Part shown: positions 36,922 to 40,101 of the stretch, piece by piece
How positions within the stretch are numbered: the first letter of the stretch is position 1
How the letters are laid out: every line of letters starts with the position of its first letter
Source: Gammaproteobacteria bacterium
GTDB lineage: Bacteria; Pseudomonadota; Gammaproteobacteria; Burkholderiales; Rhodocyclaceae
Reading direction: 5' to 3'
Assembly (NCBI GenBank): GCA_018825305.1
Contig: JAHJEO010000024.1
Coordinates: 1-64,000 of the forward strand
DNA: 64,000 nt
Made by a program: the position numbers and the translations under genes
Notes under the pieces: generated by a model
Told to the model about the DNA's origin: nothing
The model's database searches: none
Seen by the model: the letters and a program-made list of their open reading frames with translations, nothing else

Positions 36922-37791
36922 TCAATAGACCCCCTTTTCCCCGGGCGGACGGGTCTTGAAACGCTTGTGCAACCAGAAGTACTGCTCGGGCATCTTCAGC
37001 ACCTCGGCTTCGATGAAGGCGTTCATGCGCCGGGTGTCGGCCACGATGCCATCCTCGCCCGGACCCGGGTAGTCCGCCCAGGCCGGGCCGATGCCGACGA
37101 CGTATCCATCGGCTTCCATGCGCGTGATCACAGGCAGCACCGCCGCGCCGCTCATGCGCGCCAGCCGCGACAGGCCGGTGATGGTCGCCGCCGGCACATC
37201 GAAGAACGGCACGAAGATGGTGTCGCGTTCGCCGTAGTCCATGTCCGGCAGGTAATAGAACGGCATGCCCGCCTTCATGGCGCGGATGGCCGGGCGAGTG
37301 CCCTCCTGCCGCGACAGCAGCACCGACTTGCCAAAGCGGGTACGGCCCTTGTACAGCGCGGAATTGAACAGCAGGTTCTTCTGGTTGGCGTAAATGCTGA
37401 CCATGTCGAATTCGAGCGTCAGCCGCGTCCAGCCGATGTCGAGGCCGACGAAGTGGGGCACCAGCAGGATGACGGGACGATCGCGCACGGTATCGAGATG
37501 CTCGTGCCCCTCGATACGCACCAGCCGCCGCAGCCGCTCGGGCGACGCCCACCACAACAGGCCGCGCTCGAGGAAGCTGCGACCGAAAGCCTCGAAGTGC
37601 CGTCCCGCCAGCGCCGACTTTTCGTTGGCAGGCATCTCCGGGAAGCACAGGCCGAGATTGGTGAGCGCGACATGGCGCCGTTCGCGGGCAAAAACATTAA
37701 GCAACCGTCCGAACAGGCGGCCCACCGCCGCCAGCAGCGGCAACGGCAACCAGTGCAGCAGCCACATCAGCACCAGCGCGATGCGGCTCAT
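36922..37791 (-). CDS. lipid A biosynthesis acyltransferase (LpxL/LpxM family), second of pair
   Basis: 289 residues. An N-terminal membrane helix (MSRIALVLMWLLHWLPLPLL) anchors it to the inner membrane. The catalytic HX4D box is PHFVGLD near residue 130, and other family blocks are GMPFYYLPDMDYG and the C-terminal PEQYFWLHKRFKTRP. It should add a secondary acyl chain to lipid A from acyl-ACP. Its start overlaps the upstream acyltransferase by 4 bases. A motif copy at 37599-37622 is read as EKSALAGR. Confidence 0.9.
   Translation of the reverse strand: MSRIALVLMWLLHWLPLPLLAAVGRLFGRLLNVFARERRHVALTNLGLCFPEMPANEKSALAGRHFEAFGRSFLERGLLWWASPERLRRLVRIEGHEHLDTVRDRPVILLVPHFVGLDIGWTRLTLEFDMVSIYANQKNLLFNSALYKGRTRFGKSVLLSRQEGTRPAIRAMKAGMPFYYLPDMDYGERDTIFVPFFDVPAATITGLSRLARMSGAAVLPVITRMEADGYVVGIGPAWADYPGPGEDGIVADTRRMNAFIEAEVLKMPEQYFWLHKRFKTRPPGEKGVY
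37599..37622 (-). repeat. dispersed motif copy 7 (inside acyltransferase gene)
   Basis: The minus strand reads AAAAGTCGGCGCTGGCGG then GACGGC, encoding KSALAGR in a surface-helix segment of the acyltransferase. Confidence 0.72.
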
Positions 37792-38606
37792 GCTGCCGCC
37801 TCCGGCGCCCCGCTCGGTGCCTTGTAGCGGTTGTAGCCCCACAGGTACTGCTCGGGGCATTCGCGGATCAGGCCTTCGATGGCGCGATTGACCGCGGCCG
37901 GGTCGGTGAGCGGCTCGGCGGGCAAGCGCAGCTTGAGGTGATAGCCGGCGCCGTAGTGCAGGCGCTCGGCGTAGGCCAGCAGCACCGTCGCGCCGGTGGC
38001 GGCCAGGCGTGGGGCCAGCGTCATGGTGTAGGCGGGCTTGCCGAAGAACGGCGCCCAGACGCCCTCGCCGGCGCCCGGCGCCTGATCCGGCAGCATGCCG
38101 ACGGCCTCACCGGATCGCAGCGCCTTGAGCAGCTTCTTGACGCCGGACATGTCGGCCGGCGCCAGCCGCAGGTTGGCGCCGCGACCTTCCTCGATGATGG
38201 GCCCGAGCCAGGCCTGTTTGGGCCGGCGGTAGAGCACGGTCATCGGCCGGTAGCTGGCGTAGTACTGCGCGGTGATTTCGAAGCAGCCGAGGTGCGGTGT
38301 CAGGAACAGGATGCCGCGCCCCTCGTGCCATGCCGCTTCGACCAGATCCCAGCCGCTGACCTTGACGACGCGCTCCACCACCTCGTCGTGCGGCTGCAGC
38401 CACAGCTTGGGCAGTTCGAGCATGGCCTTGCCGGCTTCGGCGATGGCCCCGCCGCGCGCGGCGGCGAGCCCGGCCAGCGCAGTGTTCTCGCGCAGGTGGC
38501 TGCGGTAGCTCGGCGACAGCAACCAGGCCAGCCAGCCGACGACGGCACCGAGGTTGTGCAGCAGCGGCAACGGCAGGTGGGAAAGGAAACGGAACAGGGA
38601 ACCCAT
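37788..38606 (-). CDS. lipid A biosynthesis acyltransferase (LpxL/LpxM family), first of pair
   Basis: 272 residues from ATG at 38606 (MGSLFRFLSHLPLPLL); a TTG nine bases upstream is an alternative. The N-terminal hydrophobic anchor and the catalytic HX4E box (TPHLGCFE near 117) are present, with MLPDQAPGAGEGVWAPFFG and PEQYLWGYNRYK as family blocks. It overlaps the following acyltransferase by ATGA, suggesting two late acylations of lipid A are made together. It is divergent from metK. Confidence 0.88.
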   Translation of the reverse strand: MGSLFRFLSHLPLPLLHNLGAVVGWLAWLLSPSYRSHLRENTALAGLAAARGGAIAEAGKAMLELPKLWLQPHDEVVERVVKVSGWDLVEAAWHEGRGILFLTPHLGCFEITAQYYASYRPMTVLYRRPKQAWLGPIIEEGRGANLRLAPADMSGVKKLLKALRSGEAVGMLPDQAPGAGEGVWAPFFGKPAYTMTLAPRLAATGATVLLAYAERLHYGAGYHLKLRLPAEPLTDPAAVNRAIEGLIRECPEQYLWGYNRYKAPSGAPEAAA

Positions 38607-38638
38607 GGGGAACAAAGGCGGGGCAGAGGCGGGGGCGT

Positions 38639-38668
38639 TTGACCGACGACCGCGAAAAACGCTAATAT
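38639..38668 (+). promoter_or_regulatory. probable sigma70-type metK promoter
   Basis: TTGACC at 38639-38644 and TAATAT at 38663-38668 have 18 bases between them. Transcription would begin near 38675 and leave a leader of about 140 bases before metK. Confidence 0.6.
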
Positions 38669-38674
38669 TAAAGC

Positions 38675-38815
38675 TTCCGCCGAGTTAATCAGGACAACTT
38701 GCAGGGCGGCAGGCCGGATCACAGGCCTCAAATACTGCTAAAGCGTCGCCTGCTCGCCCCCGGAGCTGGTCACGCCGGACAACGTGGGGCCACACCAGCA
38801 ACAAGGAGCAGGCAG
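38675..38815 (+). ncRNA. structured metK leader, candidate translational riboswitch
   Basis: GCCTGCTC (38748-38755) is perfectly complementary to GAGCAGGC (38806-38813), which contains most of the Shine-Dalgarno GGAG (38805-38808; 7 bases from the ATG). The same GCCTGCTCGCCC (38748-38759) can instead pair with GGGCGGCAGGC (38704-38714), 11 bp with one bulged T. The two helices exclude each other, as in riboswitch expression platforms. Between the off-state arms lies a hairpin (38765-38770 with 38794-38799, extended by CACG/CGTG). I do not recognise a known SAM riboswitch class in it. Confidence 0.5.
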
Positions 38816-39982
<1,167 letters not shown>

Positions 39983-40001
39983 CAAGCAAGTCTTTTTCCG
40001 A

Positions 40002-40080
40002 CCCGAGGAGCGCTGCAGCGGCCCGACGATGTTCGGGCCGTCAGGCTCGGGGAGGATGTTCATGTAGCAACGGCGCTCGC
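40002..40080 (+). ncRNA. SAH (S-adenosylhomocysteine) riboswitch controlling ahcY
   Basis: The sequence fits the SAH element of beta/gammaproteobacteria. CCGAG (40003-40007) pairs with CTCGG (40046-40050). The core is GAGCGCTGCAGCGG. A stable arm CGGCCCGA / TCGGGCCG (40019-40026 / 40033-40040) follows, then CAGGCTCGG. GAGCGC (40008-40013) pairs with GCGCTC (40073-40078). Binding of SAH is known to turn on ahcY in this class. It lies 19 bases after metK and 21 before ahcY. Confidence 0.93.
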
Positions 40081-40101
40081 ACTCATCATTGGAGATAACC
40101 C

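What the first reader, a model, noticed from the sequence alone, without database searches (positions are those of the whole stretch)
38675..38815. Candidate translational riboswitch in the metK leader
GCCTGCTC (38748-38755) can pair perfectly with GAGCAGGC (38806-38813), which holds the metK Shine-Dalgarno, or its extended form can pair with GGGCGGCAGGC (38704-38714). The two are mutually exclusive, as in a riboswitch. metK makes SAM and sits next to an SAH riboswitch, so SAM or methionine feedback would make sense. I cannot match it to a named SAM class.
Basis: partly seen in the sequence, partly recalled or inferred. Interest (0 to 1): 0.66.

Follow-up and report, generated by a model that had tools for sequence, protein, structure and literature searches.

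The report
SAM-II-type riboswitch variant controlling metK
The RNA leader of the gene that makes the methyl donor SAM carries a divergent form of a known SAM-sensing RNA switch, shared by many betaproteobacteria but missed by the standard RNA library, and it most likely lets SAM shut down its own synthesis.

Summary
GCCTGCTC (38748-38755) pairs perfectly with GAGCAGGC (38806-38813), which holds the metK Shine-Dalgarno. In 83 metK leaders this helix is species-specific (own pairing -15.4 versus -10.9 kcal/mol permuted; 0 of 10,000 permutations).

In 29 leaders all 406 base-pair cells are kept. A model built from them hits 118 of 121 genomes of the family and 257 of 399 of the order; 62 of 90 loci fetched from the order are metK. 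It differs from standard SAM-II by G for U at pocket position 10, a longer L1, an often inserted hairpin and an anti-SD platform. Rfam finds SAM-II at gathering score in none of 51 such leaders.

Leyn 2014 found no regulator for betaproteobacterial metK; a 2022 footnote reports an unpublished element in B. thailandensis. Verdict: a widespread, divergent SAM-II variant, probably a SAM-dependent OFF switch. Ligand and direction are inferred.

The parts
38639..38668 (+). Promoter-like site TTGACC-18-TAATAT; would start the transcript just before P1
   Evidence: 1 found in the scanned region, 0.3 expected; consensus match only
38677..38681 (+). P1, 5' strand (CCGCC)
   Evidence: 5 of 5 pairs kept in 29 of 29 leaders
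38682..38692 (+). L1 (GAGUUAAUCAG): G8, A9, G10 (usually U in SAM-II), U11, U12; last bases are a variable-length extension
   Evidence: numbering by 2QWY, mapped from recall plus PMC3764141
38693..38695 (+). P2a, 5' strand (GAC)
   Evidence: paired in 29 of 29 but invariant there; outer pair G-C or A-U in the wider set
38699..38704 (+). P2b, 5' strand (UUGCAG), holds U20, U21, G22, C23
   Evidence: two pairs with changes on both sides in 29 leaders
38705..38709 (+). P1, 3' strand (GGCGG)
38711..38728 (+). Inserted hairpin (AGGCC/GGCCU), variable in relatives and absent in some
   Evidence: 45 of 83 inserts fold at -3 kcal/mol or better
38735..38741 (+). P2b, 3' strand (CUGCUAA) with unpaired U44 at 38739; A47 is 38742
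38745..38747 (+). P2a, 3' strand (GUC), directly next to the anti-SD
38748..38755 (+). Anti-SD (GCCUGCUC)
38756..38790 (+). Hairpin between anti-SD and SD; terminator-like in some relatives, not here
38806..38813 (+). SD strand (GAGCAGGC) of the metK ribosome-binding site
38816..39982 (+). metK, methionine adenosyltransferase
   Evidence: Pfam; NCBIfam TIGR01034, 602.8 bits
39999..40085 (+). SAH riboswitch before ahcY (neighbouring element)
   Evidence: RF01057, 66.9 bits

Best explanation
The metK leader is a divergent SAM-II-type riboswitch. P1 (38677-38681/38705-38709) and the pseudoknot helices P2b (38699-38704/38735-38741) and P2a (38693-38695/38745-38747) form the aptamer, with L1 (38682-38692) lying along P2b. 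SAM binding should stabilise the short, 3-bp P2a. P2a sits flush against an 8-bp helix that hides the metK Shine-Dalgarno, so high SAM most likely turns metK translation off. Shown by comparison: the aptamer fold and the anti-SD:SD helix. Inferred: SAM as ligand, the OFF direction, and the ligand-free fold.
For: P1, P2a and P2b pair in 406 of 406 cells in 29 leaders, 3 pairs with two-sided changes. In 61 distinct metK rows of the order U11, U12, G42, C43, U44, A45, A46, A47 are 61 of 61 (alignment fitted to the model). The same genome has sub-threshold RF00521 matches before metZ (31.3 bits) and metX (25.3 bits) (genes by NCBIfam), and the metK-built model finds both leaders (E 0.001 and 6e-4). 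Anti-SD:SD pairing is species-specific: 0 of 10,000 permutations. Contacts and conservation from PMC3764141 (passages); mechanism of SAM-II and SAM-V from PMC6061858 (passages). metK makes SAM.
Against: No ligand-binding data. RF00521 does not reach its cut-off in the metK leaders tested, and its best score among 10 loci searched at E up to 10 was 21.4 bits, E 0.87 (L012). No ligand-free partner of the anti-SD is clearly conserved. In one search the count of further pair types (5) equals the shuffles (5.0).
Confidence: 0.75

Rival explanations
1. Same SAM-II-like fold, but the U-to-G change at pocket position 10 makes it sense a metabolite other than SAM.
For: G10 in 29 of 29 family leaders and 56 of 61 distinct metK rows, where published SAM-II alignments have U10 completely conserved (PMC3764141); own metX and metZ leaders keep U10.
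Against: 5 of 61 metK rows have U10, and G10 also occurs before other genes (10 of 40 other rows), so U and G look interchangeable; the direct SAM contacts are unchanged.
Confidence: 0.08
2. The main control is transcription termination, with the SD helix a side effect.
For: 21 of 84 leaders pass a loose stem plus U-run scan, such as L019, L023 and L030.
Against: The window is not among the 21; anti-SD:SD pairing is species-specific across both sets.
Confidence: 0.07
3. A structured leader that only limits translation, or responds to a protein or temperature, with no small ligand.
For: No ligand data; the predicted ligand-free fold already hides the SD.
Against: Conserved unpaired letters match the SAM contacts, and related aptamers precede metZ and metX in the same genome.
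Confidence: 0.06
4. Chance pairing without function.
For: Leader fold energy is only mildly better than shuffles (z -1.58).
Against: 406 of 406 pair cells kept in 29 leaders; 118 of 121 family genomes have a match.
Confidence: 0.01

Closest known systems
SAM-II riboswitch (SAM_alpha, RF00521)
   Same: P1 plus H-type pseudoknot P2a/P2b in the same register as the own-genome metZ copy; U11, U12, U20-C23, G42-A47 present; promoter-like site just before P1, as described for SAM-II (PMC1273637, passages).
   Different: G at position 10; longer L1; often an inserted hairpin between P1 and the 3' strand; P2a of 3 bp followed directly by an anti-SD; below the Rfam cut-off; target metK. Leyn 2014 lists metX, metY and metA for SAM-II in alphaproteobacteria.
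SAM-V riboswitch
   Same: Close relative of SAM-II in fold and SAM binding; short P2a; translational control (PMC6061858, passages).
   Different: In SAM-V the SD is in P2a itself; here it is a separate helix about 60 nt further on. No SAM-V match.
metXZ RNA element of betaproteobacteria (Leyn 2014)
   Same: Same group of bacteria and pathway; described as a pseudoknot with a terminator (PMC4239095). I suspect it is an unrecognised SAM-II (inference, their alignment was not seen).
   Different: Found before metX and metZ, not metK.
SAM/SAH riboswitch (RF01727)
   Same: Pseudoknot sensor before metK (PMC2864571, passages).
   Different: Reported only in Rhodobacterales; no match in the leader.

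Membership tests
SAM-II riboswitch | P1 stem and pseudoknot P2 | tested here: met
   406 of 406 pair cells in 29 leaders; two-sided changes in 1 P1 pair and 2 P2b pairs
SAM-II riboswitch | Core U20, U21, G22, C23, G42, C43, U44, A45, A46, A47 | tested here: met
   present in the window; invariant in A1 and 61 of 61 metK rows
SAM-II riboswitch | L1 with U10, U11, U12 | tested here: inconclusive
   U11 and U12 met; position 10 is G in the window and in 56 of 61 metK rows, U in 5. This is why I call it a variant
SAM-II riboswitch | RF00521 gathering score | tested here: not met
   0 of 51 metK leaders (window; 20; 16; 14, of which L165 is probably the same as L005). So it is not filed as an RF00521 member
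SAM-II riboswitch | Binds SAM and rejects SAH | not testable with these tools
   needs in-line probing or ITC
Translational riboswitch platform | Conserved anti-SD:SD helix next to the aptamer | tested here: met
   0 of 10,000 permutations, 83 leaders
Translational riboswitch platform | Conserved alternative fold that frees the SD | tested here: inconclusive
SAM-V riboswitch | SD lies within P2a | tested here: not met
   P2a ends at 38747, SD is at 38804-38808

The most novel reading that the evidence does not exclude
The metK subtype, marked by G at pocket position 10, is a SAM-II aptamer with altered ligand choice or affinity, so that metK reads a different signal or a different SAM level than the U10 switches of metX and metZ in the same cell.
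Probability: 0.2. Interest if true: 0.75.

Novelty: new variant of a known kind. Interest (0 to 1): 0.52.

Why it matters
A 2014 survey of about 200 proteobacterial genomes left betaproteobacterial metK without a regulator and said attempts to find one failed (PMC4239095, passages). This element offers a specific, testable answer for much of the order: SAM feedback on its own synthase through an RNA that the Rfam model misses. It also provides a natural pocket substitution in SAM-II, next to U10 copies in the same genome.

Tried and rejected
Rfam over the window and over 38600-38900 at E up to 10 (one chance snoRNA match), and RF00521 and RF01726 over the own genome at E up to 10, did not list the metK leader. 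A wider search for a partner of the anti-SD in P1, L1 or the insert gave no clear answer. GCAGGGCG with the anti-SD was also tested: 1,389 of 5,000 in all 83, and worse than permuted in the family (4,875 of 5,000).

Results against a universal element: 142 of 399 genomes of the order have no R1 match (strict filters). Of 80 named metK loci, 50 have none, among them Gallionella, Nitrosomonas and Methylotenera, which are betaproteobacteria (recalled).

Rows dropped before counts: L031 has no aptamer (1 of 30). L090 was flagged metK by a motif but has no GCTAAAGCG landmark (84 of 85 kept; the landmark makes that string invariant by choice). L045 was left out because its start call gave a 249-nt spacer. 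Seven loci that repeat family genomes were used once. Identical rows were merged (62 metK loci, 61 distinct). The 60 loci were picked by me from the list, mostly one per genus, not at random.

Literature searches. No listing or passage I saw names the betaproteobacterial metK leader as SAM-II; the library lacks most subscription papers. Prior art: a table footnote in PMC8814607 (passages) says that B. thailandensis metK, metX and metZ 5'UTRs were suspected to have regulatory elements and that this was confirmed, unpublished. All papers were seen as search listings, outlines, passages or single sections, none in full.

Full report
The observation. The metK ATG is at 38816 and the Shine-Dalgarno at 38804-38808. 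Downstream lie an SAH riboswitch (39999-40085, 66.9 bits), ahcY, an FtsJ-type methyltransferase and metF (Pfam). A promoter-like site at 38639-38668 would start the transcript just before 38677. Minimum-energy folding of the leader is only mildly better than shuffles (z -1.58), so the case must rest on comparison.

Relatives. A 271-nt query with the leader and the 5' end of metK matched 54 of 61 genomes, own included; 30 loci were fetched. In 29 of the 30 a shared pattern stands before metK: [C/U]CGCC, GAGUUAA, a variable stretch, GACAACUUGC, [A/G][G/A], GGCG[G/A], a variable insert, then GCUAAAGCGUC, followed at once by the anti-SD. Small departures exist, such as GCGUUAA in L017 and CCGCU in L030. 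The insert is short in some (L010, L012, L021, L024, L029) and a hairpin in others, as in the window (38711-38728).

What it is. In the same genome RF00521 (SAM-II) gives sub-threshold matches before metZ (31.3 bits) and metX (25.3 bits) (genes by NCBIfam). Side by side, the metZ and metK leaders share P1, the UUGC strand, the A-rich strand and GCUAAAGCG in the same register. The metK-built model R1 finds both (E 0.001 and 6e-4). Published SAM-II contacts are U11 and U21 to the sulfonium, U44 to adenine, A47 to the methionine end and G22 to a ribose hydroxyl; U10-U12, U20-C23 and G42-A47 are reported as completely conserved (PMC3764141, passages). In the window all are present except U10, which is G (38684). 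Position 10 is G in 29 of 29 family leaders. In 61 distinct metK rows from the wider order it is G in 56 and U in 5, while U11, U12 and G42-A47 are 61 of 61 (this alignment is fitted to the model). The numbering of window bases uses my recalled metX sequence.

Structure test. On the MAFFT alignment of 29 leaders, P1, P2a and P2b pair in 406 of 406 cells. Three pairs have two-sided changes (9 cells; shuffles reach 3 pairs in 17 of 500 and 9 cells in 0 of 500). Slid partners pair in 29-59% and have at most 2 such pairs. The number of further pair types does not exceed the shuffles. P2a never varies in those 29, so they neither support nor oppose it. In the 61 wider rows its outer pair is G-C in 53, A-U in 4, G-U in 1, unpaired in 2, with 1 gap. 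P2b varies A-U, G-C and G-U at one pair, and G-C and A-U at the next.

Expression platform. Right after P2a comes the anti-SD. Pairing of each anti-SD (18 nt) with its own SD region averages -15.4 kcal/mol, against -10.9 (sd 0.31) when SD regions are permuted among 83 leaders; 0 of 10,000 permutations reach it, and the next 18 nt give 319 of 5,000. The own pairing is best or tied in 11 of 83 and in the top tenth in 43, as expected if relatives share SDs. In L018, L029, L069 and L098 both strands differ from the window and still pair. Permutation ignores relatedness, but the 29 family leaders and the 54 others each give 0 of 5,000. In 21 of 84 leaders a loose scan sees a stem followed by a U run here, so parts of the clade may use termination; the window is not among them.

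It is 11 bp and -22.1 kcal/mol in the window, -14.7 in L003, and shows no species-specific matching in all 83, the 29 or the 54. Other partners are not convincing: P1 5' strand plus L1 gives 36 of 5,000 in all 83, but 685 of 5,000 outside the family. A kinetic switch, in which the local helix forms before the SD is transcribed unless SAM holds the pseudoknot, fits but is inference. The OFF direction rests on the published SAM-II and SAM-V mechanism (PMC6061858, passages) and on metK making SAM.

Distribution. R1 hits 118 of 121 family genomes (105 of 105 good ones), 257 of 399 of the order and 29 of 299 across the phylum, of which 18 are in the order and 11 in one other family. The hits are not all metK: of 90 loci and searches are metK with the aptamer. 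With names, 30 of 80 metK loci hit, for example Sulfuritalea, Accumulibacter, Cupriavidus, Burkholderia, Paraburkholderia, Achromobacter, Bordetella, Herbaspirillum and Oxalobacter. All 30 are among the 47 most similar loci (L165-L211); of the 32 loci L212-L214 and L216-L244, labelled mostly gammaproteobacteria with some other or unassigned groups, none hits.

Known or new. RF00521 passes its cut-off in 26 of 150 genomes of the order, but in none of 51 metK leaders tested at gathering score (window; 20; 16; 14). SAM-II was noted in Bordetella in 2005 (PMC1273637, passages) and in betaproteobacteria in 2007 (PMC2258182, passages). Leyn 2014 reported SAM_alpha only in Rhizobiales and Rhodobacterales, a novel metXZ element in betaproteobacteria, and no success for metK. 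PMC8814607 mentions unpublished confirmation of an element in the B. thailandensis metK leader without naming a class in the passages seen. So the class is known and an element there had been suspected. The identification as a divergent SAM-II subtype with a pocket substitution and an anti-SD platform is, as far as these searches show, new.

Noticed in passing
L051, L055, L064-L067, L077, L081, L084, L087, L101, L104, L108-L111, L114, L115, L123, L127: Of 27 non-metK aptamer loci fetched from the order, 20 have, within 120 nt, a small ORF starting MYDC or MFDC, and 16 then show a MATE-transporter-like motif. One MATE fragment (L104) matches PF01554; three of the small proteins have no Pfam match.
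   Followed up: partly
G056, G062, G064, G067, G089, G112, G147, G155, G042 (for example L110, L111): In at least 9 genomes a SAM-II match (RF00521, over the cut-off in G056) lies shortly upstream of an R1 match on the same strand, a tandem. 44 tandem SAM-II examples are already reported (PMC9481103, section).
   Followed up: partly
L032 1501-1577 (+); L033 1501-1578 (-): SAM-II matches below the Rfam cut-off before metZ and metX in the window's own genome; the metX leader is followed by a terminator-like hairpin with a U run (by eye).
   Followed up: partly
L156-L159, L163: R1-like elements with an inserted hairpin in 11 genomes of one other family of the class; in the five loci looked at, an ORF or start beginning M(T/N).. 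with no identified function follows.
   Followed up: no
window 36922-38615, - strand: Two adjacent lipid A biosynthesis acyltransferase genes (PF03279) run divergently from metK; the promoter-like site lies between them.
   Followed up: no
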